Shown in pieces: positions 25,439 through 43,119 of a stretch of DNA of 64,000 nucleotides (position 1 is the stretch's first letter; every line of letters begins with the position of its first letter). The position numbers and the translations under genes are program-made. Source of the stretch: Favolaschia claudopus (lineage: Eukaryota; Basidiomycota; Agaricomycetes; Agaricales; Mycenaceae); assembly GCA_037176885.1 (NCBI GenBank), contig JAWWNJ010000010.1:372001-436000 (forward strand), in the 5' to 3' direction. Below the pieces are notes generated by a model. The model was given only the letters and a program-made list of their open reading frames with translations, was not told where the DNA came from and ran no database searches.

Positions 25439-25441
25439 TAT
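25439..25441. repeat. target-site duplication, left (TAT)
   Basis: Three bases directly before the left terminus, identical to those directly after the right terminus. Three bases alone match by chance about once in 64, but they adjoin exact ends of a long inverted repeat and have the length expected for CACTA elements. Confidence 0.7.
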
Positions 25442-25907
25442 CACACCGCGGGAGCGCGCAAAAAAGGCTCCCCACAGTTAGATTTTAATTTAAGATATTG
25501 AGGTACAAAAAAAGTTCCTAATATAGTACTTTGATATCAAAGATAAAAGGCTCCCCAAAAGTTCCCCCGATTAGTCCGAAACTTAGATGCAAAACAGGCT
25601 TGATCATTTTTTGAGATAAAAAGGTGTGACTTAAGCGGCTCATTTCCGCGCAACTTACGTCGGGTATCAGGGTGCCTGATTTTTCCTTCTTATCACACAT
25701 AATAAAGAGTCGTTTTTGAGCCTGATTATTACCTATAAGAAGCTGGGAATTAGGGCCCAAGATATGGCAAATATCAAGGCTGAGTAAAAGTGAGCCTGAT
25801 ATTTGCCATATTAGGCTCCCGTTTACCCGTCGTCCGATCATCCACCGACGCGTCGTCCGCTCATCGGACGCTCATCGTCGCGGTACCAGCAATAAGATGA
25901 ATTTGTT
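25442..25907 (+). repeat. left terminal inverted repeat
   Basis: About 466 bp, near-identical in reverse complement to 42640-43116. It contains an internal imperfect hairpin (about 25757-25812, arms around the sequence AATATCAGG...GATATTTGCC). The inner end has several copies of a GGACGA/TCGTCC-type unit (about 25827-25880). It also holds a long open frame on the minus strand, 25841-25518, which reads outward. Confidence 0.9.
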
Positions 25908-26005
25908 GTAATGTTTGATACATCGTCGCAGTAATGGTAGCGTACGAAAGAACTAGTCAACTATGTGAATGTACAACAGTATTTACTTTACAGCTACGGA
26001 AAACA

Positions 26006-29000
26006 TCAAGGCAATGCCCCAGTGTCCAAAAAGTCGGCACAAATAGCATCAAGATTCTTGGAGGCTCGTAAGGCGGCGTTGTATCCACGGATCCGCTTAG
26101 CCCAGCGCGCGTTGTTGAGCAGCTGCGCTGTATTTTTCCGAAATTCTCCCAAGATTTCCTGAAACCAATTCTCGCAGTCCTGCGTCCACCAACCAACGTT
26201 CAGCTCAGAGTTGAAGAATGCGCCCGCCTGTGGCCACCATGAAACGCGCTTTTCTTGGTGTCCGCTTGGGTCAATATGATTCAACTGGTCTGGAGATGAT
26301 ATTAGCTAGATAGAAGACTAGACAAAATAAAGAAACTTACTCATCTTGATCGAGTACACCCCCAAAATGAGGTCCTCTTCGGCGCTCGTCAAACGGTGGT
26401 AGAAGACGGACGTCTCTCCTTTCTTGAGATGCTCCTCGGCGGTCTCGACGTCGACATCTTCGGCCGTGAGTTCCAGACGGGAATCCTGGATGACCAGACG
26501 TGCCAGACGTGCAATGACACCTCCCGCTTGAAGAGCGAGTCGACCGCGAGGAGAAAGGAGAAACTTCTCCAGCAAACATATGTACCTACGCCAATCGTGC
26601 CTATCCGGTACGTATTCTTCTGGGCGAACGCCGTGGCTGGCGCAGCGCCGCAGCTGTGGTTGGTATGAAGAGGGCACAAAACCCGCATGCTTGACAACGA
26701 TATTGAATGGAGCCCCAAGAGCATGCAGCTGTGCGATGATTTCAGGCCAGCTGGCGCATTGAAGGCGAACGAGCTGCATTGCCGTGGCTGCGCTGTAAAC
26801 TACGATCATGCGCGAGCTTTCACGATGGGGTTTGAGAAGATATGCAGTCGAGAGGTGGCTCGGTACGCCATTTCTGTTGATGACCTCGACGGTAATGCCT
26901 GAATTTTTACGTATCTCCTGGACGGCATCGTCGTCGCGGAGATCGAACAGACGGGCAGGCATATCCCGCAGTTTCCTTGTCTTCAATACCGAGTGCACCA
27001 GCGCCAGGACGGCATGACCCAGTGTATCCGCCTTCTGAGTCTTGTCTCCCAAGAAGCGGGCAGTATGGTCAGCGCGCGCCTGCTCGTCGGGTGAAAACGT
27101 GATATCTGCCGCGTTCACGAAGCCAAGACGAGACTCCAGGGTATTCTTGACCGTGAAAGCGATGATTTCGCGGTTCAGATGGCCATACACGTCGCCTTCC
27201 TCATCTTCTTCGTAATACGCATCGACATGCTGGAGCGTGGAAGATGCCTCGGCAATGTTGCCATCGGTCGATTGGACTGCAGAGGAGGGGGCTGAAGCGG
27301 ATGGTGGAGCGGATGAGACTGAGGCGGGTGGGGGAGCGGATGAGGGAGCGGATGAGACTGGGGCGGATGAGGAAGTGGCTGAGACTGGAGCGGATGGAGG
27401 AGTAGATGAGACTGGAGCCGATGAGGGGGTGGAGGGTCCCGCAGGGGTCTTGGGGTCCGCCCAGCCGCCCATGTAGTCGTCGTCGTCGTCATCGTACTCG
27501 CCGTTGTCAGGTACGTCGGCCTTGAGGTCAAGAGGCTTGCAGAGGTCCCATTCATTTTTGACTGGGTCGAAACGACGTTGGGATGCTGCAAATTCGTCCC
27601 ATTCGTCTTCGACTTCACTTCGTATCAGCGCCTTTCGGACCCAGAAGCCACTGACTTCCTCCCACATGAAGACTCGCGCGCCTTTCTTGGATGAAGGGCA
27701 CTGTTGCTTTTTTGAAGCGTCAAGACGGGAGGTATATTTCTGCCGATCTTTATCTGACGCTGCCGCTATGATTTTCGCATTCCGTTCCTCCCGTCGGGCG
27801 AAGAATTCAGCATAGCCCTGTCCCTCTTTCTGGCCGCTGTAAAGTTCGACGGGCGGGAGCTGAGGTTCGGGCTCGATAGTTGCCAAGTAGTCGGGGTTGG
27901 GAAGAACGCCCCATCTACGGAAGGTCGACTTGATGTAGACGTATTCTGTCATTTTGACGGGAGAGGGAGGGAGATTGGCCAATGAGCTGACGTCGCTCTG
28001 AACATAGGCGGCGATATGGCGCATGAATCATTCTCCAACCAGGAAGCCCTGTTGGTGGCGGACTGACCGTCTTCGCCCAAGAAAAAGTAGACGGGGACGT
28101 GGATTTTGGTCTCGCCGTTGAGCAGTAGCGAAAACAACCACCCGAGTTCCTGCACCATGCCCTCTGAAGTGTCAACGATCATCCCCGCAGGGGATTGTAG
28201 TACAAGCTCGACAGCTTCATCCAACGAGTCCATCATTCGGTACTGAAGCCGCACCGTTTTTCTGAGTTCAGACCGCCAGGTGTCGCGTTGGGGAGAACCA
28301 TCGAGAAGGAGAAAGTGCAGCGCGACGGACGCAAACAAGGGCATGAATGCGTCGCGGGAGGAAGAAACAGCCCTGACGAGCTCGCTTTGGTCGAGGTAGG
28401 AGGAAGTATAACCAAGTCGGGTCGGCCGAGGGGCTTTGGGGCAATACCGCCGAGGTTGTACTTTGCTAGCTTGCAAGGATAACGAGTCGAGCACGGACAT
28501 CAGTAAATTCTCCAAATCCGTCCATTTTTTTATGATAGCGGGGGTCAGTGCCCAACGTGTTTCCTCGCCATGAACCTGCGATGACATCGGCAGCGAACGT
28601 ATCGACACGTCAAGGACATGCAGCAACGCGCCGCCATACGTCGGGTGGAGGGGCGTGCACGCAAGGTAACATGAGGTGGGGTGGGTCCATGTCGTCGTGT
28701 ATAGAACCCCATCCGGACGCGAGGGGGAGCGAGGAGGCATGCCAAGGAGAGCGTTGCGATGGGCATTGAAGACCAAGAAGACGCCCATGTGATTGCGTAC
28801 GATGCCATGAAAGTGGGCGGTGGGCTGGAATTTATGAGTTAGTATCGATATAGAGCTGGCAATCCGAGAAAGAATACTTACAGTAAGCGTGTCTTTCTCT
28901 TCTTTGGAGAGTATTCCCAGAGGAACGAGACGATAGGGCCCATTGTGAAATTCCCGCTGTGATCCAAGATCGGAGGCGAACAAGGACGACGAAGATGACG

Positions 29001-29235
29001 ATGAAGACGACTCTGCAGGGACAGGCTTTGAGAATGAGGAACCGGGCGGCAAACGCCTCGGTTCCTGTTGCCCGCGCTCGCGAGAGTTGGTGGTGGTCGG
29101 GTAGAAAGGAGGGACCGAAGAGGACGACGACGAGAAAGCAGCATCAGGGCCTGGCGGCAAACACCTTGGCTCTGAAGATGAGGGATCGGGCGGCAAACGC
29201 CTCGATCCCTGTTGTGTGCGTCCGCGAGAGGTCAT
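26006..29235 (-). CDS. 999-residue transposon-borne protein, function unknown
   Basis: Four exons (29235-28882, 28824-28068, 27945-26341, 26289-26006) add up to exactly 3000 nt. The first part has repeated RRLPP units, each encoded by one of the hairpins, within a Ser/Pro-rich region. The middle carries GQKEGQGYAEFFARREERNA, GARVFMWEEV and ASQRRFDPVKNEWDLC. An acidic and Ala/Pro/Ser repeat region follows (PSSAPVSS units), then a globular part (LVRLQCASWPEIIAQLHALGAPFNIV). The end has VSWWPQAGAFFNSELNVGWWTQDCENWF. From memory, proteins with this motif order are frequent unannotated proteins in Agaricomycete genomes. No enzyme signature was recognised. The second intron (122 nt, donor GTCAGT, 28067-27946) is the least certain junction: without it the frame ends at 27949, where the stop overlaps an ATG at 27952. 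Met 29235 follows a CT-rich leader and a (CCA)n tract. Confidence 0.7.
29037..29066. repeat. covarying hairpin 1 (in coding exon)
   Basis: Centre GGCG-GCAAA-CGCC-T at 29045-29058 with perfect 8-bp arms AGGAACCG / CGGTTCCT. It lies in the first exon of the 999-residue gene and encodes RRLPP on the minus strand. Confidence 0.9.
29145..29174. repeat. covarying hairpin 2 (in coding exon)
   Basis: Centre GGCG-GCAAA-CACC-T at 29153-29166 (one C/A mismatch inside). Arms CAGGGCCT / TGGCTCTG give six Watson-Crick pairs and one G-T pair. It encodes RCLPP in the same exon as hairpins 1 and 3. Confidence 0.8.
29181..29210. repeat. covarying hairpin 3 (in coding exon)
   Basis: Centre GGCG-GCAAA-CGCC-T at 29189-29202 with perfect 8-bp arms AGGGATCG / CGATCCCT, unlike the arms of hairpin 1. 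It encodes SRRLPPD. Confidence 0.9.
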
Positions 29236-29402
29236 GGTGGTGGTGGTGGTAGTGGTGGTGGTGGTAAAGAGGAATAGAGTTTTTCGAAGACATCGTTGAA
29301 GATGTCTTCGAAAAAGAGAGTTTGATGTGACATTGATGCGCTCGTCACGCATCCATCGTCACACCTCCCGCCTCCTCCTCGCCATCAAGTCCCACCCATG
29401 TC

Positions 29403-29432
29403 GTGCTGCGAGGCGTTTGCCGCCCGCAGTGC
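29403..29432. repeat. covarying hairpin 4
   Basis: Centre in the opposite orientation (A-GGCG-TTTGC-CGCC, 29411-29424). Arms include CTGCG / CGCAG plus two G-T pairs and one further pair. Confidence 0.85.
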
Positions 29433-29551
29433 CCTGAGCCCCGACTCTCTCGATGCCAGCCACCACCTATATGCCATATGATGGCGTCTCTCGCCATATC
29501 TACCGTTGACAAGTCGCCATCGTCCGTCGGATCCAAGTACTGCTCTTGTTG

Positions 29552-29579
29552 TGCTGCGAGGCGTCTGCCGCCCGCAGTG
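29552..29579. repeat. covarying hairpin 5
   Basis: Centre A-GGCG-TCTGC-CGCC at 29559-29572, arms CTGCG / CGCAG plus two G-T pairs. It is part of the same duplicated block as hairpin 4, so the two are not independent. Confidence 0.85.
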
Positions 29580-29732
29580 ACCCGAGCCGCGGCTCCTTCG
29601 ATGTTTGCCATTGACTAGACTCTGTGTCTTAGCTCCCTTGGCATCATCGTCGCTGTTACCGTTGCCGTCGCCGTCGCCGTTTGCATCGTTGATCATTCTC
29701 TTCCAAGATATAGTCTCAATTCATTCGTGCTG

Positions 29733-29756
29733 CTATCAGGCGTCTGCCGCTGGTAG
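29733..29756. repeat. covarying hairpin 6
   Basis: Centre A-GGCG-TCTGC-CGCT at 29738-29751, its first centre pair being G-T. Arms CTATC / GGTAG give four Watson-Crick pairs and one T-G pair. Confidence 0.75.
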
Positions 29757-29861
29757 AACAGTACTGTTGAGGACTGTATTCGAATATAACTCACAACTAT
29801 CCATGCACGCATCGGGGGAGAAGGATTCAAGAAACGCTTCATTGCAATTACAAGTCACTAA

Positions 29862-32048
29862 TTACACCACCATGCGATCAGTCGCTGCTACGAACAAAGC
29901 AAACACCTCCTCAGACACTTCCAACTCCTTCAGCTGTTTCGGGGTCTGTGACGCGAGCCAAGCGCTGTCGTACAAGCACCTCGGAAGATTTTTTGGAGCA
30001 GGTCTGCTGCCTTTCTCCTGGCTCCGTTCGCGAGGAGCAGACTTGGTCCCGTTGGAGAGCTCCTCGAAACGCCGTGTCTGTATGTCCACTATATTCAAGT
30101 ACTTCGAAATGCTCTCTTCGCGCCAGACACACAGCTTAATTTTGAATGCCTTGACCTTCTGGCCCTGGATGGCCTTGGACACCTGTTCCTCCTCAGACAT
30201 ACCCGCAGCCTGAAGATAATCAAGCAGCTTGAGCAGTCGGATCCAGGTAGCAAGATCGCCGTCGTTCTCCGCCTCTTTCAAGGCGATCACTGCCTCCACA
30301 GTGGTACGACGATGCATGTATTTCTGGCAACAATAATTAGCGAGCGCATGTGTCAAACAGAAGCACAAACTCTCTGCTGTGCGTTGAGGGTCTTGGCCGC
30401 CATGCGACGGATGTATAGCATGACCTTCCCGCGCGCGACTGCCTCCTGTTTCGTCTCAAGACGGTTGGCGTTTGTATCCCATCTGGGCTGAAAAAGCTTC
30501 CAATCCGCACGATATCGCTCCAGCTGCTCCCTCACGACAAACTCCAAAAACTCTTCCTGAATCTCACCTTTGCTAACATATCTGCGCCCTTCCTCATCTT
30601 CCGCGACCGCTGCCTTCACAAGCCTTTCCATCTGCACGACATTCCACGCTGTGTTCAAGTAGCCGGCACCGAAGTCCCACTGCCAATGCTCCAGCGTCGC
30701 CGTGTCATCGGCTGCGAAATCTTCGACCTCTTTCTCGGTCGCCGGAATATGGAAGATGAAGTCGTTGCTTTGCTCGACTTTAAACAAGCGATAAGTCGTC
30801 TGACGCATCAAAGCCTACGATCTCGGTGAGTTCATTTTCCAATTCAGCGTTCTTTGCTTACATGTGCTATGTTGATAAGCTCCTTCGTCTTAGGCTGAAC
30901 CGCCTTTTTCAAGGCCTTGCGGGGCTTGGGGGCCTTCCTCTTTGTGGGAGTTACGGCAACTTGCGCGTTGGTTTTTTGGGTAAGCGTCAACAATCCCAGC
31001 ATATCCGACATATCCTCATCGTCCATATTCAGCTTAGCAGCCACTCTTTTCACAACCGGATGGTCCATCAGACCAGACAGTTCCGCCGGTTGACTATCGG
31101 AGGGAAGCGGATTGGGACTGTCCGCTGGAAGGGGAGCAGGATCGAGCGGGAGATTAAGCGTTGCAGGCTTCCCCGTCCCAAACAGCTCGTTGCTGACGCG
31201 TCCGCGACGTCTCGGCGTCGGCTTGGGCTTGTCGCGCACTGCAGCCTTGAGCTGCAAGCGAAGCTGCAAGACTTCGTCGTCTTGCTTATGGACCTGTGTG
31301 CGAAGCTGGCCTAGCTCGGCGTCGCGTGCGTTCTAGGCGACGCGTCAGAACATTCTCAGGTCAACGGCAATGAAAATACGTACGATCGCCTGTTGAAGAT
31401 TGTACGTCTGGGTAGAAGCTTCAACGGCCTGATTCTGAGCAGCACGAACTTGTTCGATCTGTACAACCACATATCAATATGGTATCTCGCCCGTGATACA
31501 AGGGAACGCACCAATTCGCTGAGTTGCTGCTGGTCATAGATGATTTGATCATGCAAGTCACCTTCTTCAGAATTCATCTTCTCCATGTGCGTACGAGCTT
31601 CGGCGATCTGTGCGTGCAGCTGCTGGACTTCGGCTTGGCGATCCTGGAGAGCTTTCTGTGCTGCGAGGAGGTGTGCGCGAAGAAGATCGTTGTCCTGCTG
31701 AGCGGCGCGAGTGTCTTGATAAGCTGCGCGACTGCGTGCGCGATGAGCGCTCGCATTATCTCTGTGATACTGCTCATTGTTGCGTGCCTGGTTCAGGTTC
31801 AGCATAGAAGACAGGTTCAGCATGGAAGACAGCAGCAGAACATTTCGCGCGTACCTCGTCAAGCGCCTGTTGCTCAGGGCCTGCAACGGCCTTTTTCTTA
31901 CTGGGACCTTCCGCGTTGGCGCTGAGCGGAACTTTCAAGCGCGGCTAGAAAGAAGTCAATCAATATTCAGCAGCAGAGCTGTAACACAAGCAGCGCATAC
32001 GGGAGCTGTGTATGGCTCGTCCATTGGTGCGTCCCCTTCGTTGTTCAT
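29862..32048 (-). CDS. 621-residue coiled-coil protein, function unknown
   Basis: Seven exons (32048-32001, 31944-31855, 31787-31512, 31458-31384, 31332-30862, 30814-30371, 30323-29862). Every exon is a whole number of codons, so all introns are phase 0. The start is acidic (MNNEGDAPMDEP). A long coiled coil follows (about residues 45-180: LLRAHLLAAQKALQDRQAEVQQLHAQIAEARTHME and on). Then come a basic patch (PTPRRRGR), a Pro-rich linker and a second basic patch (TPTKRKAPKPRKALKKA). The C-terminal half is helical (LMRQTTYRLFKVEQSNDF, LEHWQWDFGAGYLNTAWN). From memory this C-terminal text belongs to a family common and unannotated in mushrooms. The basic patches allow nucleic-acid binding, but that is inference. 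A hairpin lies 19 bp upstream of the start codon. Confidence 0.75.
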
Positions 32049-32066
32049 AGTGGAATCGTGCTCACT

Positions 32067-32090
32067 GTTCCCGCGGCAGACGCGTGGAGC
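32067..32090. repeat. covarying hairpin 15 (upstream of the 621-residue gene)
   Basis: Centre CGCG-GCAGA-CGCG-T at 32072-32085, with arms GTTCC / GGAGC (four Watson-Crick pairs and one T-G). The outer centre pair is C-G here instead of G-C, so a whole pair has been swapped while loop and bulged T are kept. It lies 19 bp before the start codon at 32048. Confidence 0.75.
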
Positions 32091-32789
32091 AGAAGATGAG
32101 AGTAGGGAGTGATCAAGATGGGGCGGCGGGTGGGGAGAGGGCCTTAATATATATTTATTTTGGACTCATTGTTTCTCAATGGAGAACGAGCGAAGACAGA
32201 GGACAAAGCCTCAATAGAAGGGAACCCAAATTGGGACGCCATAGGTACCTTTTCGGACCGAATGTAAAATTTACTCTCTACTGTCTCAACCAGGTATTTT
32301 AGGGCAACGAACGACTCTGTACAGTGTCAATGTATGTATGTACCTAGAAACAATGATAACTGTGTCCGAAAATCACAAAAGAATTGTAAACCTGAGTGTT
32401 TCTGCTTGTCGGCCGATGAAGACGGATGGTCGGCCGACGGCTTCGATATCTCGGATATCTCACATGAATCGGTCGTCAAAAGCAAGAAAAACCAAGAGAC
32501 AAATGTATTGGGGTTGACTAGGTAGGTACACTACAAGGATAGCCAATAGATAGAAAATATTGTACCAGTGAGCAGGATAAACTATTCGTTGGCAAGTTGA
32601 TCTGTAAAGGATCCGCATCGCAAGACGATAACGGCGGCGGCGGTAAATCACCGAGCCGGGACACGAGGTGGGGCATGCATGTGCGTCGACGTTATGGTCA
32701 AGAAATTGATTCAGAAACACATGGTCAAGAAATTTTGATTCAGGTCATTCGCAAACACATTGTACATGAGATTAGACTACGGCCAGATG
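32091..32789. other. intergenic, no gene seen
   Basis: About 700 bp, relatively AT-rich, between the head of the 621-residue gene and the tail of the 241-residue gene. Short open frames only. Confidence 0.45.
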
Positions 32790-33628
32790 CTAACGCGTCG
32801 GAGGGAAAGGTTGGAGTGCCCTCTTGCTCGTGCGCTGGTCAGATGTTAGAGGGAAAGTTTGGGAGAAAACGGCCAGTACACGTACGGGGTGTAAGTCGTT
32901 CACCGCTTCAACAACTTTTTTTTCCTTCTCCGCTTTCGACAATTTTGCAGCTGACGCCTTGCAAACGCCTATCAAGATTTTCTCAATAGGCCAGCGTCCG
33001 ACAAAATTGTCGACCTCGGGGAACTTCTTCACAACCTATGATAGATTAGACCCGTTCCACGGGACAGACTTAGACTGGCGGCAGGGAGCTTACCATGTCC
33101 ACAACCTTCTTCTTGACATTTTGGTCCTGCTTGCTCACCGAGATGCCGGGCTCGAAGTTCTGGGCGACCAGCGCCGCGACAAATTTCTGAAAAGAAAAGA
33201 GAAATTAGAATAGAAGTGAATGAGATAAACCAACAATGTACCTCGAACTTCGCAATGAACTCGGGCTTCCACCCAGTAAGGATCGGGAAGTCGGTGTCCG
33301 AGACGCGCGAAGGGCCCCCCTGCGGCCATTTGACTTTTGAGAGGGTTAATTCCTCGTATCCTGAGCTGCTGTCGCTTGGGGGGCTAGGCGGCGGCTCCGA
33401 CAGAGGGCTGGGCGGCGGCTCTGAAAAGGCGACAGCCTTCTTGGGTGCCTGGGGCTTGGGTGGAGGTGGCTTTCTTTTAGGGAGTTGCGGAGGAGGACCA
33501 AATCTGTCCAGGTCCTCGTGCATAAGGAGGGTTGGGAAGGTAGGCGCCACAAAATCCGTATGCGCGAGAGGCACGATGAGAGGCTGAGGAGGCTCAGCTA
33601 CTTTCGCGATGAAATTTGGGTTGGCCAT
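32790..33628 (-). CDS. about 241-residue proline-rich transposon-borne protein
   Basis: Exons 33628-33242, 33186-33094 and 33035-32790 join in phase 0. The N-terminal half is Pro-rich and low in complexity (KRKPPPPKPQAPKK, then SEPPPSPLSEPPPSPPSD). The second half is helical and basic-acidic mixed (KFVAALVAQNFEPGISVSKQDQNVKKKVVDM, WPIEKILIGVCKASAAKLSKAEKEKKVVEAV). A further 51-nt GT..AG segment with a CTAAC branch site in the last exon could also be spliced without changing frame, giving 224 residues. It has no recognised domain. It is oriented head to head with the propeller gene, 203 bp away. Confidence 0.65.
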
Positions 33629-33831
33629 GAGTGCGGAGTAGAAGGGGTGCGGAGTAGAAGGGGTGCGGAGTAGAAGGGGCGCGGTGAAGCGAGTACCAGC
33701 CTTGGATGAGGTAAGTCATCAGGCGGTATCCCCGTTGGATTGGGGCGCAATTGTTCTCGATTCGTACGTGCAGGCCTTCTGTGTTTATTGTAGTCAGTGG
33801 TAGAATTATTATAAAAGAAGCTGCGCTCACC
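33629..33831. promoter_or_regulatory. bidirectional promoter region
   Basis: 203 bp between two divergent start codons (33628 minus, 33832 plus). It contains a short tandem repeat of about 13 bp near 33635-33685 (GGAGTAGAAGGGG units). The two genes probably share control elements; this rests on arrangement only. Confidence 0.45.
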
Positions 33832-35273
33832 ATGGACCCCGCAAAAATGGACCGTCATCCAGCAAATAAGAAAATCGATTATCGCTTCCAAGGCAAGCTC
33901 ACCGGCTACTCTGGCGCCATCCTCGCCATCAGCGTGCGTGAGGACGGCAAATTTGTAGCGGGTGGAGGTCAGGTCACCTTCGCATCCTCCTGCTCCTGAC
34001 GCTAACTGTGAATCGTTCTTAGGCACCGGTGGGGTCAATGTATGGGAGTTGGCGACGGGGCGCAGCATCGCGCAGGTCCCAGCAATCCCCGACGTCCGTG
34101 GAGCAACAACGGTCGTTCGCTGGATCAAGAGCGACGACGACGTCTTTGAAGCCCTGGTCTGCGGTACACAAGGAGGCTACGTGTTTTGCTTGAAGCAAGA
34201 AGAAGTTGTACGCTCTCGCCTGCTTTACGATGTGATTCTTCTGCTGAAGCTTTGTTTCAGGACGGGGAAACCCGCTTTACAGAGGTGTGGTGTCGGCAAA
34301 TGAACGACCCGGCTGAGATCACAGGAGTGGCTTTCGACGGCGCGACCAATCGCCTTGCTCTCTGCCATCGCGGTGGGGTCTTGCAGATATATAAGCTGAC
34401 CCATAAGCTCGGATTGAAGCATTTTTATTGTGGGACGATCCCCAGCTGCTCTCCCGGCGCCATCATCTTTGGGGAGATGCACGGGAACGAGCGCGAAATT
34501 CTTGTCTTCGGAGTGCACTGTGGCCTTGTGTGAGTTTTTTTTTCGACATCTATCGAGACGATACAACACTTACCAACTTTAAGGTACTCTTTCCGCGGTT
34601 CGCACCTCTCCACCGCTGCGGAGGCAGAAAGTCTCGGTTGTCGAATGTACGCTTGGGTTATATTTCCGTCGTGGAAGTCGCTGATTATCGTGCACATTTC
34701 AGCGGTGGGGTCGCAGTAGACCATAGCAAGAATGTTATCTGTGTCGACGATCCATCCTGCGGCGTCCGTGTCTATCATCTCAGTGATCTATCCGTCGTCA
34801 ACACGTTGCGTGTCCCTGTCGAGAAGCGACCTCGTATTCGTCAGGTGGCGCTGGCAGATTCCGGTCGCGTTGTCGTGAGCGGCAGCGACCACGGTGTCGT
34901 ATACGTGCATGCACGTCGCAACAGTAAGCCGCTCGCCAAACTGCGCGTGGATCCCAGCGACTACGTTCAGACCGTCGCAGTGAGTACTTATTTCTCTTTG
35001 CTTCTCTCTACTCTTGAGATTCCGTCTCATAAGCTGCAGGCGGCGGACATAGACGGGGTGCCAACCATATTCGCGGCGAAATCGTCCCCCACGACAGGCG
35101 CCAATGATATCGTCGTCTACCGCCAGACGATGAAAAGCTCTCTGCGGTTTGCATCGCGCGTCGGCGGACTGTGCGCCTCTATTTTTTGGTACATCGTGGT
35201 GTTTGCGGCGATGGCGTACGTATACGACAGAGTGGGGGAGCAGTTGTTTTTGGAGTACTTCGGGGGTATGTAG
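33832..35273 (+). CDS. beta-propeller (WD40-like) protein with C-terminal membrane segment
   Basis: Exons 33832-33967, 34023-34207, 34261-34529, 34628-34979 and 35040-35273; phases agree and the total is 392 codons with stop. Blade-like units include GAILAISVREDGKFVAGGG followed by GGVNVWELATGR, ITGVAFDGATNRLALCHRGGVLQIY, and RQVALADSGRVVVSGSDHGVVYVH. A single membrane segment (LCASIFWYIVVFAAMAYVY) lies near the C-terminus. From memory, propeller proteins ending in one membrane helix form a large unnamed family in Agaricomycetes. The fourth intron uses a late acceptor (34627): an earlier one at 34583 has a better branch site but gives a stop. The stop codon lies within the first unit of an exact 68-bp tandem duplication. 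Confidence 0.7.
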
Positions 35274-35378
35274 TACATGTAGTCGAATAGAATGAACAAG
35301 AGTGGCCAAAGTTGTTTTTGGAGTACTTCGGGGGTATGTAGTACATGTAGTCGAATAGAATGAACAAGAGTGGCCAAA
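35243..35378 (+). repeat. exact 68-bp tandem duplication
   Basis: 35243-35310 and 35311-35378 read identically. The first unit contains the last codons and stop of the propeller gene; the second is in its 3' region. The exact match suggests a recent event. Confidence 0.9.
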
Positions 35379-35389
35379 GTGCCCCATCC

Positions 35390-35413
35390 TCCTCAACGGC
35401 AAACGTCTAAGGA
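35390..35413. repeat. covarying hairpin 7 (weak)
   Basis: Centre AACG-GCAAA-CGTC-T at 35395-35408; the outer centre pair and the first arm pair are A/C mismatches. Arms TCCT / AGGA follow. This is the least regular copy. Confidence 0.6.
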
Positions 35414-35450
35414 AGGAGAGTCGCAGCTGAGAAGTTTCCATACCCGACCC

Positions 35451-35472
35451 TCTCGACGGCAAACGTCTGAGA
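35451..35472. repeat. covarying hairpin 8
   Basis: Centre GACG-GCAAA-CGTC-T at 35455-35468, arms TCTC / GAGA, all paired. Confidence 0.8.
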
Positions 35473-35473
35473 T

Positions 35474-36032
35474 AGTGCAGGGAAACGGCCATACTGTCGC
35501 AGCCCGAATTCGGCCGTCACATAGGTGACCGTGACGTGACACTTTGGGCGGGTGCGTCTTAATTCAGTTTCTCTGATTATGTTTTTTTTTCGCTGTTCGT
35601 CATCGGGACATAGAAAGAGAGTCTAGATACTAACTAATTCACACTGCATCGTCAAGAAAATCATTACAATTTGTATTTTAGATACACGATGTATTATCAC
35701 ATGAATAATTTAACGGTTTTCTCGAAAATTGAATCTTCATAGCGCTATAAATGCAAGTGAGCAAACGAGAAGAAAAAGGAAAGCAAGGTATAGAACGTAC
35801 TGGACGACAAGACGTGGGTTGAGGAGGAACATCCATCGCAGACGCCGCCTGTGCGTAACCGTGGGGGCATATGCTCGCCAGCCTAAAGCCATGCGAACAG
35901 ACGGCGAAGCGCTTGAAGCTATGAGCGCAGACAGCGGTGCGCTTGAAGCCGTGAGCGCAGACAGCGGCGCGCTTGAAGCCGTGAGGACAATGAGCCTACA
36001 AGTACTTGAGTACGAGAGATGGTGTATGATAT
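35474..36032. other. intergenic / possible extra exon
   Basis: On the minus strand a 30-bp unit is repeated about three times with more diverged flanking units (about 35890-35995), coding for AHGFKRxAVC-like ten-residue repeats with regularly spaced Cys and His. A GT..AG segment with weak donor GTCCGT (about 36042-35991) could splice this onto the Ser/Thr-rich gene. Otherwise it is 3' non-coding sequence. Confidence 0.4.
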
Positions 36033-36737
36033 TCATTGGGTACGGACCTGAGGATGCGATTCTTGGGGCCAGCGGGTACGCTTCTTTGGTCTGCAGGCGC
36101 GCGACTGTGTTGCTTGAGTAGAGGCAGAAGGCTTCGAGGAAGTAAAAGGTCGAGATGCAGTAGACTGGGATTCAGACGGTTGCCGGGAAATCGCCGCAGA
36201 GCTGGTGGATGTCGTCGAGGCAGATCTTGAGTAGGCAGATCGAGAGGCAGGGAGACGGGAAGTAGAAGGTCGGGATGTCGTAGAGTGCTCAGATGTTTTT
36301 GCACGCGAAGAAGGGCCTGAGGCGGCCTGACATACACAAGATTAGGAAGAAGAGAAACGGGCAGTCGATTAAGACGTACCTCAGAAAGCTGGATGTTTTC
36401 AAGCTCGGATACGAGACGTTGAAGTTCTTCCGCAGTTGGAGGAATCCACACGTTAGCGGGAGACCATTGCTCGACGACAGACGACTAAAAAATGCATTAA
36501 ACCGGATAGCAGAGAGCAAGGACGGAGCATGCAAACCTTCAAAGCCTCCTCACGAAGTTCTGAAAGAAACAGCGTGGACTCTCGCATGAGAAGCAACGGA
36601 CTCTCAGCGCCCATAGATTTTGCGCGTCTCCTCTGATAAGCTGACTGATACGGGTCGCTCAGGAGTTTTGGCGTGCTGGGGAGGGATATTGGGCTACCAA
36701 GGCGCATAGTCGAATGAGGGTGTCGAATAGAGGACAC
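36033..36737 (-). CDS. Ser/Thr-rich transposon-borne protein, about 199 residues
   Basis: Exons 36737 (or Met 36707) to 36537, 36484-36380 and 36326-36033, all phase 0. The first two exons encode a helical region (LLLMRESTLFLSELREEALK, TAEELQRLVSELENIQLSE). The third is almost entirely Ser/Thr/Arg/Pro (TTSRPSTSRLPASRSAYSRS) and ends with a basic motif, RPKKRTRWP. No domain was recognised. An additional 3' exon with Cys/His ten-residue repeats is possible. Three hairpins lie upstream. Confidence 0.55.
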
Positions 36738-36912
36738 TTGGGAAATTGGAGCGATTTAAAGAAGAAAGAAGCTTAGCCCGGGCACCCAGGAAGACAATAA
36801 GCGCAAGACAAAAGACCAAGAGACAAAAAGCTGCGAGGGGTGAGGCGGTAGCGAGCATCGAAGTCGGCAAGATCCAAAGGGTAGAATGTGGAGAATAATC
36901 CGCAGATATGAG

Positions 36913-36938
36913 GCTCACGACGGCAGACGTCTGTGAGC
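36913..36938. repeat. covarying hairpin 9
   Basis: Centre GACG-GCAGA-CGTC-T at 36919-36932, arms GCTCAC / GTGAGC, perfect 6 bp. Confidence 0.85.
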
Positions 36939-37026
36939 GAAGGTACCTTGAAAGGTATGCATTGACGAGGACGCATGGTGATTGAAGGACGAGCGAAGAG
37001 GAAGTGATGGCGGGCGGGAAGTACCA

Positions 37027-37054
37027 GCCTCGCGACGGCAGACGTCTGTGAGGC
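37027..37054. repeat. covarying hairpin 10
   Basis: Centre GACG-GCAGA-CGTC-T at 37034-37047, arms GCCTCGC / GTGAGGC (six Watson-Crick pairs and one G-T). Confidence 0.85.
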
Positions 37055-37060
37055 ACTATA

Positions 37061-37090
37061 GAGCTCGCGACGGCAGACGTCTGTGAGCTC
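37061..37090. repeat. covarying hairpin 11
   Basis: Centre GACG-GCAGA-CGTC-T at 37069-37082, arms GAGCTCGC / GTGAGCTC (seven Watson-Crick pairs and one G-T). Confidence 0.85.
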
Positions 37091-37253
37091 GCCAGTGGTA
37101 GTGGTGGACTTGGGAGAAATATCGAGAAGTGCCGGGCCGGTGCAGTGCCGGGCCGGTGGACGATGACTCAGACGATGCTGTGCAGCGGACTCCAAATTTG
37201 GCAAGTCCGCCCTCTTCCCGTCTCCCTCACCGACCTCGTCCAGCGCATACTAA

Positions 37254-37283
37254 TGGGTGTCAGACGTCTGCCGTCGACACCCA
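37254..37283. repeat. covarying hairpin 12
   Basis: Opposite orientation: A-GACG-TCTGC-CGTC at 37262-37275, arms TGGGTGTC / GACACCCA, perfect 8 bp and unrelated to the arms of other copies. Confidence 0.9.
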
Positions 37284-37300
37284 AGGTGCTGCGTACGCTC

Positions 37301-37324
37301 CTGCAAGACGTTTGCCGTCTGCAG
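37301..37324. repeat. covarying hairpin 13
   Basis: A-GACG-TTTGC-CGTC at 37306-37319, arms CTGCA / TGCAG, perfect 5 bp. Confidence 0.85.
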
Positions 37325-37539
37325 AGCATTCTGCGCTCATCGTCCCCGTGCGTCGTCCGCGTACGTCGTCCGCGCGCGTTATCTGCGCATCGTCGGTACC
37401 TCTTCGCTTCATGGCTTATTGTTCTTTGCCGCATGCCCGTCCACGCCTTTCGATCGCCCTGGTCTAATTGTCTACCGGGCTATTGTCTGCAGCTCATAAA
37501 ATCTCAGCTGAACTTGCTCTCTCGCCCATTTTCGAAAAC

Positions 37540-38016
37540 ATGAATTGTTGCTGCGGGAACCACCACCACCACTACCAATCTTGCTCCCGCTCGTCCTCTC
37601 AGGCAGCGTCGCAACAATCTAGCAGAACCTACAAATCCGGCTCTACTACCTCGTGTAAGTTTCAATCTAAGTATCTATTCCTGAATATTGATCTTTCTCT
37701 CCCCAGATCCGCTCCTCTGTCGCAATTGCGATATCTGTCCCATCTGCAGCCTTCCGCAGACTGAAGCTCCGGTTGTCGCTCCCGCTCCCGCTCCTGCGCC
37801 CGTGGATGCCAATGATGGTGAGTATCTTCTTCACTCGACGCTTGGTCCCATTCTTATTATTCACTCAGGACACCTTTTGCCTCGGCTCTCCCCCCAATTT
37901 CTTTTCACGCTTTTCCTTCTCCAGGCACACCTCAGTGGCAACTGGCTTCACCTGCTCGCGTACATTGTAGTCCTTGTTACGTTCGCAATGTAATTCGGGG
38001 ATACGGAGCACAATAG
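37540..38016 (+). CDS. 105-residue Cys-rich protein
   Basis: Three exons (37540-37654, 37707-37817, 37925-38016), all junctions phase 1, 318 nt in total. The protein starts MNCCCGNHHHHYQSC. A Ser-rich stretch follows, then CRNCDICPICSLPQ (four Cys in CxxC spacing), an Ala-Pro repeat, and HCSPCYVRNVIRGYG. The Cys/His pattern suggests one or two zinc-binding knuckles. It is too short for the ORF tools and is visible only after splicing. No family was recognised. It lies just upstream of the transposase on the same strand, so a regulatory or accessory role in transposition is possible but only inferred. Confidence 0.6.
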
Positions 38017-38137
38017 ATGTAGCGCCTTGTTCTTTTTGATAACGGCGATTTCCTCTAAAGAAGTTTCTTGTCACTATATAAGATTGAATCATCCGACGTC
38101 CGCTCCCCACTCCCTCCATTTTCCCCCAACTGCCTCA

Positions 38138-38163
38138 TTCGCCAGGCGTTTGCCGCCGACGAA
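38138..38163. repeat. covarying hairpin 14 (abuts transposase start codon)
   Basis: A-GGCG-TTTGC-CGCC at 38144-38157, arms TTCGCC / GACGAA with one C/A mismatch. Its last base is directly before the ATG at 38164, so in the transposase mRNA it would sit in the 5' leader against the start codon. Confidence 0.75.
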
Positions 38164-41100
38164 ATGCGAGCTGTGCGAGTTCCCACATATACATGCAGTA
38201 ATTGCCCCTTGAATGACCATCGCACTCATCAGCCCTTGAAGGTCAACCGGGTGATACACAATGCAGACATTGCTGCTCATTGGGAAAGACAAGCTGCTTC
38301 CCCTGCTGTCGAGCACGCTGCCGATCTCTCTGGTGATCTCGTTGACAGTCTCGCGAATCTGGCGATAGACGAGGACATGTCCATGCCGGATGCGGAGGCA
38401 CCGGTGGCTGACGCAGCGACCCAGTCGTCGGAGGCTGCGGCGGCGGAGGCTGCGGCGGCTGAATTGGAAAGGTTTGCCAGCCTTCTCACTGGCTTGATTG
38501 TCGTGGACGATGGTGCTCCTCCCGACAATCAAATCCACTCAAAACTCTTCAGCTCTCGCGAGGACTTTCAGTCTGACGTACCTGAGGTTCCTATCGCTTT
38601 CACCCCCATACCGGCCTCGGAAGCGTTGGAGAGCTTGAAAACGGCCGCTCAGTCCCACCTCCGCCCAACTGCAATGCAGGTTCGGCAGAATGATGAGGCT
38701 CTTTTGCGGGAGATGCTGCAGCGAACACGTGAAGCACGATCAGAACTCGACTTCCAACGCGCTTTGGAGGCCGACACTGAAACGGTCGCTTCGCTAACGA
38801 GCGCCCTCGGGGTCGCAACTTCGGTCGTAATCGAGGCAGGCAGGCTCCTTAAAAGTTTTAAGCCCAAGAGCAAGCCGACGCGCAAGTCTCCGAGGAAACC
38901 ATCCCCCAGTGCTAGTTTCGATGCACTGCTGCAGAGCGTGACCGAAGAATCGAGAGCCTTGGACGTGCTCATCGATGTTGTCGGTCCCCTTCTTCCTCCA
39001 TCATCGGATGAAGTTCTTCATGATGCTGGTATGTCGTTTTAATCCTACTCTTATGTTTCCTAACTGAACAATTATTTAGCGCATCATTTCGAGGATCCTA
39101 TCGCCAAGTACAGCCTCGTCGCACAACTCTCGATTCTCCTTGCAGTAATATGTCACATCGTCATTGGCATCAGCACCGTATCTACGGATTTCATCGTCGC
39201 TTTCGTCAATATCATAATCCAGTCCACGATGTCGATATGTTCGCCGGGAAAGAAGCAGGCCAGTACGACCCAAGAACATGTTCTCAAGCAACTTCCTACG
39301 TCCTTGGAAGCAGCACTCCGGAGATTCAAGATTGACCCTGCCACCACTATCATCGCTATCTGTCCATCTTGCCATCACGCGCACGACCCAGTAGAGAACC
39401 GGCTTACAGACGAACCCTCGTACCCCGAAATGTGTCAAGGCTGGATATATCCTGACCGGGGCCCGCGCACTGCGTGCGGAGCTCCTCTCCTCGAGTTGCG
39501 TCAAGGAAAAATGCGGCCCATCAAGCCCTTTGTATTCACCTCCTTTGTGGACTACATCGCGGCGATGCTATCTGACGCAGACGTGGAACGAATGTGCGAG
39601 GCAGCTTGCGACGATGCCTTGGCGGCGGTTCGTGACGCCCTCTCAAAGGACCCCAACGCGCCCGTCTCGGAAGAGCGAGTCAACAACGTATTCGAGGCTG
39701 CGTTTCTTCGCAGCTTTCCGGGCCCTGTTCCTGACAAGCTGTTCATACAACGGGATGGTCGGCTGCGACTCGCCTTTCAGGTGATGCTGGACTTCTTCAA
39801 TCCGGATGGGACGAGGAAACGGGGCAATCACAACTCAATCGGCATTCTGGCCGTCGTCAATCTCAATCTCAGCGAGGATATCCGCTACCGCCCAGAGTTC
39901 ATGTGGCTGAGCATCATTCTGGGACCTAGCGAGCCCAATCACGACCAGATCGATAACTACTTCCGCCCTCTCATCGACAAGTTTGTCTTGGGATGGGAGC
40001 GGGGCTTCCGCCTTTCACGTACCGCTCTCCATAGCTCTGGTCGCAGTGTCGACATAGCAATCGTAATGAACGTCAATGATCTTCCCGCTACACGAAAAGC
40101 CCAGGGTATGGCAGCTGCCACCTCACACGACTACTGTTCAGTCTGCGACTGCCACGGTATCAAAACGATGTATAACACGGACTTTAACGTTTGGAGGCGA
40201 CGCGACGTCGCGACTCTACGAGCTCAAGCATATGCGTGGCGAGATGCTCCGTCGAAAGCTGCTCGCGATGCGATCTTCACCCGGTATGGTGTGCGGTGGT
40301 CAGAGTTCTGGCGTCTCCCTTATTGGGACCCCACTCGGATGGCCGTCGTCGACTCGATGCATTGTATATTCGAAGGCCTCGTCCATCACCATTGTCGTCG
40401 GGTACTGCGAATCGATTCCAAATTAGCTAAGCGTAAAGAGACCATGGGTGCCGCCTTCGAGTACGACTGGCCGGAGTACGATACCGCGAAATGTCCTCGT
40501 GTGGCCTTTTTGAAAAATGAGAAGAGGGAGCTACCCATGATACGCACCATCCAGCACAAACTCGTTCAACCGATTCTCGAAGAAGACGACGACGACGACG
40601 ACGACCCTGGTATGGACGAAGCGGACGACGAAGATGTGGTAATGCCCGATGCACCCGATCCAAAGTTTGTACCAGCTCTGTCGGATGAGCAGATGCACAA
40701 GCATTTGATGAAAAACAACCACCAGCCGCTTCGGTGGGTCGTCTTTTCACTTGGGCTAGACATGGCGAACACCGGGTCGAAAAAACTTTGCTGCGACAAA
40801 CTTCTGGCTTGGGTAAGTATATATTTTCCATCTGCATAACTGATACTGACTGTGACTGTCCTTAGCGTCGCACCATGCCTGCCAGCAGCGGCACATACAT
40901 TCCCCGCTCTATAAACCTCGCAAATATCCACTTCATCCAGCATGTCATCGCTAAGACCGACACGCCAGGGTGGGTCGGTTCGGTTCCAAGCACTTATGGT
41001 GACAGCAATGCGGGCACGATCAAGGCCGCTGAATGGCGGATCCTCGCCACCATCTATATACCGCTCGCCCTCATTCTCATATGGGGCGATTTCGACCCGT

Positions 41101-41939
41101 CAGAGCAGTCGCTTCGATTGCTTGAGATCCTGGACCATTCAATGGCGCTGTTCTCGGCTGTTATCATCGTTTGTCGGTACACGATGACGCGTCAACGTGC
41201 AAGCACCTACCGTAACCTCCTCAAGAGATGGGTCGACGGCCTTGAGACTATTCATCCCCACACTCGCTCCCATGCTATGCGACCTAATGTGCACATGGCC
41301 TTTCACATATATGACTTCCTCCTTCTTTTTGGTCCTGTTATCTCATGGTGGACCTTTCCCTTCGAACGCGTCATTGGATTTCTTGAGAGAATCAACACCA
41401 ACAATCATATCGGTGGAGAACTTGAAGCCACGCTATCCAGATCTTTCATGCGCGGAGCCAGCATACGCCGATGGTTGCGCCGACCCAGCTGTCCGGCAGT
41501 CTTCCAAGAGCTGAAGGTTCTCTTCGAGAAGTCTTTTCCAGCATACAATGCTCCCTCCGATTCCCCTCCGCTCGCGTCAGACGGCGAGCGTGCCCTCTAC
41601 AAACGAAACGGCGTCACGTTCGCCCGTGCAAGCACGCACCGAGGCAATAGTCTCGTTTTCTATTACCCGCGCAACTCCCGTCAGGCCATCCCCGGGAGTA
41701 TCCAACGAATTCTGTCTGTCGGAGAAGAGGTAAAATTCGAGATCCGCCGTCAAGCACCAATGGAAAAGGGGATGCGCGACCCCTTCGCGCGTTATCGACC
41801 TTTGTTTCCGGCATATACCTATTCTTCTAAGATGAGCGACATTTTCGATGTAGTCCCGCTTTACGACGTAACTGCTCATTACGCTCGGTATAATTTCACG
41901 GATGGTCGTTGTGCCGTTTTAGATCTTTCTACTAGCTAG
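38164..41939 (+). CDS. Tnp2-like (CACTA/EnSpm) transposase of the giant element
   Basis: Exons 38164-39028, 39080-40812 and 40866-41939. The N-terminus (MRAVRVPTYTCSNCPL) matches the CxxC start of copy 1. A linker with acidic and Ala-rich stretches follows, then the catalytic part: CPSCHHAHDP, LDFFNPDGTRKRGNHNSIG, GPSEPNHDQIDNYFRPLIDKF, NDLPATRKAQGM, CSVCDCHG, LPYWDPTRMAVVDSMHCIFEG, an acidic insert (EEDDDDDDDPG), and FPFERVIGFLERINTNNHIGGELEATLSRSF. These are the usual Tnp2 landmarks with the expected Asp residues. Predicted activity is excision and insertion of the element by its terminal inverted repeats, with 3-bp duplications. All three exons are open and similar in structure to the copy at 1.4 kb. 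Met 38164 was chosen by alignment with copy 1. Confidence 0.85.
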
Positions 41940-42639
41940 TTTACTTGATACATACATGATTTTATTCGATTTCATTTTTCCTTGTAACCGCCAGCTTGAT
42001 GAGCCCACGCGTCCGACTGTATAAACCCGAGGTATAGTCCAGCTGAAAATCTGACTTGACTCACGAATCACGCAGGACTGCAAGATAAAACCCAATTTAT
42101 TGCGGCTATGTACGAAAACGGTATGTATGTACACATTTCGTTTCGACTTAATTGCTGACTTGGGTCTACGATAGTTACACTACTAGGCTTAACAAACAGC
42201 TGAAGAATCTCAAAGCAAGTATCTACAAATCGTGAGTGCGTCAGAATTCACAAGAAATCCAAGCAACTCACCTAAAAATCGGCTGTGCGGTATCGTACAG
42301 GGCGTCTTCGACTTCACGACAAACATCATCAATGCCCCAACTCCAGAAGAACTCGCGGTGCGAATGTCCACACCAGCAAGCAAACGACCCCACGGCCAGC
42401 CCACGCGAACGAAGACGAGCGTGAATCAGGGCCTCTACAAAACAAATCCGTTAAACGAACGAAAGAAAAAATTCGACTCACCCGTCAGCTTCACGCAGGA
42501 CGTCGGCCAATGGGGCTGCTGATGCAGTCGTCGTCCATTCGTTTGTGTAAGTATGTATCGGATGCGAGCCGGGATCGAGATGCGTGCTGGACGCGATTGA
42601 AGTCAGTGGTATAGGGGATCGATGCAGATTAAATTGTGA
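41940..42639. other. internal 3' region of the element
   Basis: 700 bp between the transposase stop and the right inverted repeat. Short open frames only; no gene seen. Confidence 0.45.
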
Positions 42640-43116
42640 AACAAATTCATGTTTTCTTTGACTTATTGCTGGTACCGCGACGATGAGCGGACGATCGAGC
42701 GGACGACCGTCGGTGGACGATCGGACGACGGGTAAACGGGGGCCTAATATGGCAAATATCAGGCCCACTTTTACTCAGCCTTGATATTTGCCGTATCTTG
42801 GGCCCTAATTCCCAGCTTCTTATAGGTAATAATCAGGCTCAAAAACGACTCTTTATTATGTGTGATAAGAAGGAAAAATCAGGCACCCTGATACCCGACG
42901 TAAGTTGCGCGGAAATGAGCCGCTTAAGTCACACCTTTTTATCTCAAAAAATGATCAAGCCTGTTTTGCATCTAAGTTTCGGACTAATCGGGGGAACTTT
43001 TGGGGAGCCTTTTATCTCTGATATCAAAGTACTATATTAGGAACTTTTTTTGTACCTCAATATCTTAAATTAAAATCTAACTGTGGGGAGCCTTTTTTGC
43101 GCGCTCCCGCGGTGTG
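42640..43116 (-). repeat. right terminal inverted repeat
   Basis: Reverse complement of 25442-25907, with about a dozen differences and one small indel near the inner end. Contains the same internal hairpin, the GGACGAYCG-type units (about 42685-42730) and an outward-reading open frame (42798-43040) that differs from the left one at one residue. Confidence 0.9.
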
Positions 43117-43119
43117 TAT
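43117..43119. repeat. target-site duplication, right (TAT)
   Basis: Same three bases as on the left side of the element. Confidence 0.7.

What the first reader, a model, noticed from the sequence alone, without database searches (positions are those of the whole stretch)
29037..38163. Family of fifteen hairpins with constant loop and covarying arms
Fourteen sites match AGRCGTYTGCC (one with a mismatch) and a fifteenth is a variant at 32067-32090; all lie between 29.0 and 38.2 kb. A motif of that length with two twofold positions would be expected about 0.1 times by chance in 64 kb. Each site reads arm-GRCG-GCARA-CGYC-T-arm'. Arms differ between copies but stay complementary: AGGAACCG/CGGTTCCT, AGGGATCG/CGATCCCT, TGGGTGTC/GACACCCA, GCTCAC/GTGAGC, CTGCA/TGCAG, CTGCG/CGCAG, GTTCC/GGAGC. 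The centre itself covaries: A-T in GACG/CGTC, G-C in GGCG/CGCC, and a swapped outer pair in CGCG/CGCG. Selection or copying therefore seems to act on the fold (cruciform, single-stranded DNA or RNA) and on the 5-nt loop and bulge. A GNR(N)A-like pentaloop such as GCARA recalls protein-bound RNA hairpins like phage boxB; that parallel is inference.
Basis: partly seen in the sequence, partly recalled or inferred. Interest (0 to 1): 0.93.

Follow-up and report, generated by a model that had tools for sequence, protein, structure and literature searches.

The report
Swappable-loop hairpins at transposon promoters
A mushroom's jumping genes carry, beside their promoters and start codons, a set of tiny hairpins whose loop is fixed within one transposon family and different in the next, which looks like a private lock-and-key code for controlling each family's own genes.

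Summary
In detail: 13 exact sites, one with a mismatch, one variant. All 15 lie inside a 17,675-bp CACTA/EnSpm DNA transposon (25442-43116) of Favolaschia claudopus with ~450-bp inverted repeats and TAT target duplications. Covariation is real: in 22 distinct hairpins 93.6% of cells pair (66.3% shuffled, 0/500) and 9 of 10 pairs change on both sides; orthologous sites show compensation, so this is not block duplication. Related transposons in the same genome lack this hairpin but carry their own at matching places: UYUGC (I), UUGUA (II), AUACAC (III), GCCUAC (IV), UAGAU (V), tentatively UUUCA (VI). Sites point away from promoter centres, and the transposase-gene hairpin ends 0-11 nt before the ATG in five of six leaders examined. 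Best reading: family-specific RNA hairpins in the leaders of the element's transcripts, bound by an element-encoded protein. RNA rather than DNA action is likely, not proven; the binder is unidentified. Eight literature searches listed no such report; CACTA subterminal repeats are the closest known thing.

The parts
25442..43116 (+). CACTA/EnSpm DNA transposon holding all 15 hairpins (17,675 bp); ends CACACCGCGG...CCGCGGTGTG; TSD TAT at 25439-25441 and 43117-43119
25442..25896 (+). left terminal inverted repeat (about 450 bp, 98% identical to the right one)
42662..43116 (-). right terminal inverted repeat
26006..29235 (-). gene A (deposited as a 1,022-aa hypothetical protein, P0007, on a record of this contig's length); its first exon contains three hairpins in frame (RRLPPDP, RCLPPGP, RRLPPGS)
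   Evidence: no Pfam domain
29862..32048 (-). gene B (several exons, unknown function), ATG at 32048
   Evidence: codon-periodic change between copies; homologous exons in sister families
33029..33630 (-). gene C, unknown, no hairpin
33835..35273 (+). gene D, sub-threshold beta-propeller similarity and a hydrophobic C-terminus, no hairpin in its leader
35996..36484 (-). putative gene E: longest open run of one frame 132-162 aa in four element copies
37540..37993 (+). putative gene F (small, spliced; position conserved)
   Evidence: reading frames only; weak
38164..41939 (+). gene G, tnp2 (Transposase_21) transposase; ATG 38164
   Evidence: E 2.5e-9, above Pfam cut-off
29037..29066 (-). hairpin aggaaccg-A-GGCG-TTTGC-CGCC-cggttcct, gene A first exon
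29145..29174 (-). hairpin (GGTG/CGCC, U-G wobble in sense), gene A first exon
29181..29210 (-). hairpin agggatcg/cgatccct, gene A first exon
29403..29432 (+). hairpin ctgcg/cgcag, no gene identified downstream
29551..29580 (+). hairpin ctgcg/cgcag, no gene identified downstream
29730..29759 (+). hairpin ctatc/ggtag, no gene identified downstream
32064..32093 (-). variant hairpin CGCG/CGCG, 16 nt before the gene B ATG; TATA-like box upstream
35387..35416 (-). hairpin GACG/CGTT (G-U wobble; AACG/CGTT in copy C58)
35447..35476 (-). hairpin atctc/gagag
36911..36940 (-). hairpin gctcac/gtgagc, upstream of putative gene E (GATG/CATC in C47, with C instead of the bulged A)
37026..37055 (-). hairpin cctcac/gcgagg, upstream of putative gene E
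37061..37090 (-). hairpin gagctcac/gcgagctc, innermost leftward site of the divergent promoter axis
37254..37283 (+). hairpin tgggtgtc/gacaccca, innermost rightward site
37298..37327 (+). hairpin ctgca/tgcag
38136..38163 (+). hairpin ending at the base before the transposase ATG; TATATAAG at 38075; GGCG/CGCC here, GACG/CGTC in sister elements

Best explanation
The 15 sites are RNA hairpins in transcripts of a CACTA transposon. Transcription starts inside promoter regions, two of them divergent (around 29.3 and 37.2 kb), and hairpins lie near the 5' ends of the transcripts with the loop strand in sense. In RNA each reads: variable lower stem, bulged A, stem GRCG/CGYC, loop UYUGC. A protein, most likely encoded by the transposon itself, recognises loop, bulge and upper stem and needs the lower stem only as a stem; binding to many copies coordinates expression of the element's genes. 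Where the hairpin touches the start codon (transposase), it can block or license translation, as phage coat-protein operators do. Copies in the divergent direction without a known gene suggest that the nascent RNA, not only the mRNA, is read, as with TAR or boxB. Related families changed loop and bulge together, which keeps each family's regulator off its relatives' transcripts. SHOWN: structure, covariation, concentration in elements, orientation away from the axis, adjacency to ATGs, different loops in different families. INFERRED: action as RNA, a protein partner encoded by the element, the regulatory effect.
For: Covariation. Strand polarity: ordered along the DNA, sites switch once from leftward to rightward at each axis: window A axis 6 of 6, F axis 5 of 5; L029 5 of 5; L030 6 of 6 between transposase and gene D; L034 4 of 4; L032 4 of 4; L036 3 of 3; tentative family VI 2 of 2. 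My arithmetic without L030, allowing any axis position: about 1e-4. Innermost divergent spacing 120-223 bp in all ten axes measured. Position: the transposase hairpin (outer stem) ends 0 nt (window), 1 nt (L035), 3 nt (L036), 11 nt (L030, L031) or 38 nt (L029, variant loop) before the ATG; the gene B hairpin ends 16 nt before its ATG. TATA[AT]A lies within 93 nt upstream of these two window sites and of none of the other 42 of 44 sites tested. G-U exceeds A-C in the loop-side stem 13:2 over six families (p 0.007), 36:12 over all stem cells (p 0.0007). Loop swap: families at 56-58%, 51%, 48% and 42-43% transposase identity carry UUGUA, AUACAC, GCCUAC and UAGAU. Protein side line: gene A homologues repeat the encoded peptide with complementary codon arms; of 19 matches in seven proteins 17 could be scored: S-D 3, S-G 2 (a G-U wobble), P-G 12, P-D 0 (would be A-C), Fisher p 0.015; without the six from F. 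claudopus itself 2, 1, 8, 0, p 0.055.
Against: No transcript data were available; start sites are inferred. In family I the lower arms show no strand bias (G-U 6, A-C 6 in window sites; distinct states 6 against 9), and predicted RNA stability does not differ between strands (p 0.13; in family I the antisense is slightly more stable). The G-U count is partly biased, because families III-VI were first found by scans that allow G-U but not A-C; the counts also mix related sites. Shuffled-arm tests are not significant for families III-VI taken alone (2-4 sites each). Five of 15 sites have no identified gene downstream in sense, and E and F are only putative. Genes C and D have no hairpin. Three sites lie in coding sequence. 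One UUGUA match per locus in L030 and L031 (3874, 6143) is no hairpin, points against the polarity rule and was left out. No binder was identified: gene A has no Pfam domain and its predicted structure was unusable (mean pLDDT 34). I did not find near-start hairpins for families III, IV and VI in the leaders printed.
Confidence: 0.55

Rival explanations
1. DNA-level operators: an element-encoded DNA-binding protein (a TNPA analogue) binds the sites as double-stranded palindromes or extruded cruciforms flanking divergent promoters and represses or activates them.
For: Clusters sit symmetrically around promoter-like axes, including sides without a known gene; in family III the two flanks of the axis are inverted copies with identical hairpins; A-C in sense, which is G-T in antisense, is as common as G-U in family I lower arms; CACTA elements elsewhere use family-specific repeats bound by an element protein (PMC2613891, passages read).
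Against: A duplex-binding protein gives no reason for arms of unrelated sequence to stay complementary; strict polarity away from the axis; abutment to start codons; G-U excess in the loop-side stem.
Confidence: 0.25
2. The hairpins act on RNA without an element-encoded protein: a host RNA-binding protein, the ribosome or the RNA-silencing machinery reads them.
For: Same structural evidence; no recognisable RNA-binding domain among the 10 frames of the element scanned with Pfam.
Against: The loop differs between transposon families in one host genome, which a single host factor would not ask for; stems of 8-13 bp look too short for dicing (recalled, not tested).
Confidence: 0.12
3. Small palindromic mobile repeats, or a few duplicated blocks, without function.
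For: Some sites are clear duplicates (29416/29564; 29049/29193; 36923/37038/37073).
Against: Sites are at conserved places in diverged copies, with compensatory changes; arms are unrelated between groups; 6 of 6 fetched off-element matches have no arms; 87 of the first 100 listed of 181 genome matches of the 14-nt motif lie in nine family I copies; homologous places in other families carry other loops.
Confidence: 0.05
4. Transposase recognition sites for excision and insertion.
For: Repeated family-specific motifs are typical of CACTA ends.
Against: No site lies within 3,595 bp of the left or 4,953 bp of the right end, so none in the inverted repeats.
Confidence: 0.03

Closest known systems
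CACTA subterminal repeats bound by TNPA/TNP1-like proteins (En/Spm, Tam1, soybean Tgmt*; PMC2613891, passages read)
   Same: Repeated motif, direct and inverted, able to form stem-loops (Tgmt*: 12 in the right and 2 in the left border), diverging between families together with the protein presumed to bind it.
   Different: There the repeat, which forms the stem, is the shared part and lies next to the ends (within 159 and 732 bp in Tgmt*). Here the loop is constant, stems vary with compensation, and sites lie at internal promoters and start codons, at least 3.6 kb from the ends.
Phage coat-protein translational operators (MS2, PP7; recalled)
   Same: Short hairpin with a 5' bulged A, short upper stem and specific loop beside a start codon.
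   Different: Those serve one message; here 15 per element, several genes, divergent directions; binder unknown.
TAR and boxB (recalled)
   Same: Bulged or looped hairpins near the 5' ends of nascent transcripts, where a self-encoded protein acts on transcription.
   Different: No known partner here; many copies; loop exchanged between sister elements.
Iron-responsive element (recalled)
   Same: A hairpin regulon with a 5' bulge and constant loop over variable stems.
   Different: Loop and bulge differ; no Rfam match in the window; found concentrated in transposons.

Membership tests
CACTA/EnSpm DNA transposon | tnp2-type transposase | tested here: met
   PF02992 E 2.5e-9, above the curated cut-off
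CACTA/EnSpm DNA transposon | 5'-CAC...GTG-3' termini in inverted repeats | tested here: met
CACTA/EnSpm DNA transposon | 3-bp target-site duplication | tested here: met
   window TAT; C7 and C18 ACA, C47 ATT, read from the ends printed; the right ends of C58 and C20 were not in the printed stretches
CACTA/EnSpm DNA transposon | catalytic DDE residues intact | not tested
   -
CACTA subterminal TNPA-type repeats | located next to the terminal inverted repeats | tested here: not met
   nearest sites 3,595 and 4,953 bp from the ends
CACTA subterminal TNPA-type repeats | constant linear motif, flanks unconstrained | tested here: not met
   arms covary, 93.6% paired against 66.3% shuffled
CACTA subterminal TNPA-type repeats | bound by an element-encoded protein | not testable with these tools
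   -
Structured RNA element | compensatory base-pair changes beyond controls | tested here: met
   family I; family II weaker (p about 0.005); families III-VI too few sites
Structured RNA element | transcribed | not testable with these tools
   RNA-seq was made for this strain (PMC10905254) but is not held here
Structured RNA element | strand asymmetry (G-U tolerated, A-C not) | tested here: inconclusive
   loop-side stem 13:2 over six families, but family I lower arms 6:6
Any Rfam family | match at gathering score | tested here: not met
   0 matches in 64 kb
   sense-strand loop is UYUGC relative to genes A, B and G; sense is inferred from genes, not RNA

The most novel reading that the evidence does not exclude
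Eukaryotic DNA transposons use an RNA hairpin code. Each CACTA family marks the leaders of its own transcripts, in both directions from its promoters, with many copies of one hairpin whose loop and bulge are private to the family. An element-encoded RNA-binding protein reads it, controls the element's genes together, and has co-diversified with the loop so that sister families in one nucleus do not cross-regulate.
Probability: 0.38. Interest if true: 0.92.

Novelty: new variant of a known kind. Interest (0 to 1): 0.8.

Why it matters
If right, it adds RNA-level, family-specific self-recognition to cut-and-paste transposons, which are thought to tell self from non-self through DNA ends and repeats. 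At least five parallel loop solutions in one genome (a sixth tentative), on homologous promoters, would form a natural experiment in how RNA-protein specificity is rewired, and a possible source of orthogonal RNA tags for laboratory use. It also gives an assay for why many related transposons can coexist without cross-talk.

Tried and rejected
Rfam gave nothing and ARAGORN no tRNA. Pfam gave nothing for gene A and C frames and only sub-threshold matches for one B and one D frame; E, F and one B exon were not scanned. Recurrent-loop scans found no convincing hairpin family in L037 (33% family, 3.6 kb), and only a two-copy candidate in the 49% family of the window's left end, close to chance by my own estimate (one similar chance pair in L037) and kept as tentative because of its divergent placement. 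A relative of that family (L038) had no such hairpin. Two of four small stretches chosen by coordinate for more family I copies (L047, L048) contained no site; I cannot tell absence from a misplaced stretch. Of 14 transposase copies at 82-100% identity hairpins were seen in nine; C84 and C153 are those two misses; C100, C126 and C228 were not examined. Energy comparison of the two strands did not discriminate. A plus-strand ORF at 29581-30213 was considered as the gene behind the three plus-strand sites and rejected because it is not open in sister copies. Left out of the covariation alignment as decayed or chance: a family I-like site in C7, C18 and C20 (GACG/CATT) and one in C18 (TGTC/GGTG), and one in L046/L049 (CCTGC loop). 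The site sets were chosen by me: one search dropped the length-changed orthologues of 29049 (C47) and 35399 (C7, C18, C47); one search took representative copies and left out the L030 match at 3874.

Papers: eight searches listed no report of such hairpins; I judged by titles and starts of abstracts, and searches listed only a part of their hits (20 of 242, 12 of 14, 10 of 246). Seen beyond listings: passages of PMC12730594 and PMC2613891, abstract and outline and the first of two parts of the text of PMC10905254. MS2, PP7, TAR, boxB and IRE are from recall.
Full report
WHAT THE REGION IS. The window is G000:C10:372001-436000 of a 264.6-Mb, 460-contig assembly. Gene A of the window matches deposited Favolaschia claudopus proteins whose record lengths equal contigs C10, C17 and C7, and the published assembly is 265 Mb in 461 contigs (PMC10905254). 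All fifteen sites lie within one DNA transposon, 25442-43116. It has ~450-bp inverted repeats, 98% identical, ends CACACCGCGG and TAT duplications, and a Transposase_21 (tnp2) protein, so it is a CACTA/EnSpm element. Codon-periodic divergence between copies and homologous exons in sister families outline genes A, B and C (leftward), D and the transposase G (rightward). A putative E (leftward) keeps one long open frame in four copies; a putative F (rightward) rests on frames only.

The count of 15 is right. On the covariation alignment of 22 distinct hairpins, 9 of 10 pairs change on both sides and none of 500 shuffles reaches any of the five measures. For the 15 window sites, lower arms pair in 81 of 90 cells against 42.5 expected from re-dealt arms (0 of 20,000). 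Comparison of orthologues shows compensatory double changes at 38149 and 36923, and at the orthologue of 35399 in copy C58. A scan of the copies prints 15 sites in C7, 16 in C18, 13 in C20, 13 in C47, 14 in C58 and 5 in C17, against 15 in the window, mostly at corresponding places; two kinds of these look decayed or chance. The 14-nt core AGRCGTYTGCCGYC occurs 181 times in the genome against 23 for the reversed control; of the 100 places listed, 87 lie in nine copies of this family and 13 are scattered. Six of six off-element matches of the 13-nt core that were fetched have no arms and no similarity to the element.

SISTER FAMILIES CARRY OTHER LOOPS. The transposase has 78 scored matches in the genome, a lower bound, falling into groups. 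In the group at 82-100% identity the UYUGC hairpin (family I) was seen in nine of 14 copies; two short stretches missed it and three copies were not examined. Three elements at 56-58% (L029, L030, L031) lack it but hold eight copies each of CGTTGTACG, nearly all in hairpins YGRCG-UUGUA-CGYCR with a variable bulge, found first as the most repeated 9-mer and independently by a structure scan. The 51% family (L034; same in L039) has AUACAC in four copies; the 48% family (L032, L040-L042) GCCUAC in three to four; the 42-43% family (L035, L036, L043-L045) UAGAU in three. The window's own left end belongs to a 49% family with a tentative UUUCA pair at about 0.58 and 0.72 kb. The paper reports 86.8% of BUSCO genes as duplicated, so near-identical copies may be alleles and are not counted as independent.

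PLACEMENT AND POLARITY. Sites flank promoter-like centres, leftward ones to the left and rightward ones to the right, with 120-223 bp between the innermost pair in ten axes measured. Two centres occur in the window element, near 29.3 kb and 37.2 kb. The exception is one UUGUA match inside gene D of L030 and L031 that is no hairpin and was left out. Single sites sit at gene B (16 nt before the ATG) and at the transposase gene, where the hairpin ends at the base before the ATG. In L035 and L036 its outer stem ends 1 and 3 nt before the ATG, in L030 and L031 11 nt, in L029 38 nt. TATA-like boxes lie upstream of the two single sites in the window; AAGTCC lies within 93 nt upstream of 11 of 44 loops, some of them shared by neighbouring sites, and downstream of none. 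Ten of the 15 window sites precede or open a gene in sense (A 3, B 1, E 3, F 2, G 1); E and F are putative; five have no gene.

RNA OR DNA. For RNA: polarity, ATG adjacency, and G-U over A-C in the loop-side stem (13:2, p 0.007; all cells 36:12, p 0.0007). Against or neutral: family I lower arms show no such bias (6:6), folding energies of the two strands do not differ (p 0.13; in family I the antisense is slightly more stable), the G-U counts are partly biased by how families III-VI were found, and no RNA data are at hand. A side line comes from proteins: gene A homologues of Roridomyces and Mycena repeat the hairpin-encoded peptide. Of 19 repeats matched in seven proteins, two of them from F. 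claudopus, 17 could be scored: S-D 3, P-G 12, S-G 2 (a G-U wobble), P-D 0 (would be A-C), p 0.015; without F. claudopus 2, 8, 1 and 0, p 0.055. This suggests, weakly, that the hairpin is older than the genus; the DNA of those species was not available.

HOW IT MOST LIKELY WORKS. A self-encoded protein binding these hairpins in the leaders of the element's own transcripts is the reading that best accounts for the constant loop, variable but paired stems, presence at several of the genes, divergent polarity and different loops in sister families. Which protein, and whether it acts on transcription or translation, is open. The rival with most weight is DNA-level binding by a TNPA-like protein.

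COMPARISON. Soybean CACTA elements have subterminal repeats able to form stem-loops, diverging between families with their presumed binding protein (PMC2613891, passages). Here location, the constant part and the compensation differ, so membership in that class is not met, though the logic of a private address may be the same. I call it a new variant of a known kind because self-encoded proteins binding family-specific repeats are known in CACTA elements, and hairpin operators are known elsewhere; their combination at DNA-transposon promoters was in none of the listings of the eight searches.

Noticed in passing
window 1-4000, transposase at 2254-3933; hairpins near 576 (-) and 720 (+): A second CACTA transposase (about 44-49% identical) in the window, with a divergent pair of hairpins of loop TTTCA upstream; tentative sixth hairpin family.
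   Followed up: partly
29280-29315: A 15-bp-arm palindrome (TTTTTCGAAGACATC...GATGTCTTCGAAAAA) near the centre of the gene A promoter axis, kept with small changes in sister copies.
   Followed up: no
44 hairpin sites in six families: AAGTCC lies 14-69 nt upstream of 11 of 44 loops and downstream of none; possibly a start-site element, though in L034 it is partly in the arm.
   Followed up: partly
L029:1060-1250; L030 about 8690-8890: In the 56-58% families three copies of a different, longer hairpin (GAACGCGGTGCTACGCACTGTACGTTC) lie just upstream of the gene A match, where family I has its three coding hairpins.
   Followed up: no
54006-54173 and 56911-57078: Two arrays of 84-bp repeats with units (GGTTCAAAC) in opposite orientation, about 2.9 kb apart: perhaps the ends of another element.
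   Followed up: no
37192-37201: A CCAAATTTGG palindrome in the F/E promoter axis, kept in C47; L029 (family II) and L035/L036 (family V) have GTGTCAC repeats in that place instead.
   Followed up: no
35242-35377: A perfect 68-bp tandem duplication at the 3' end of gene D.
   Followed up: no
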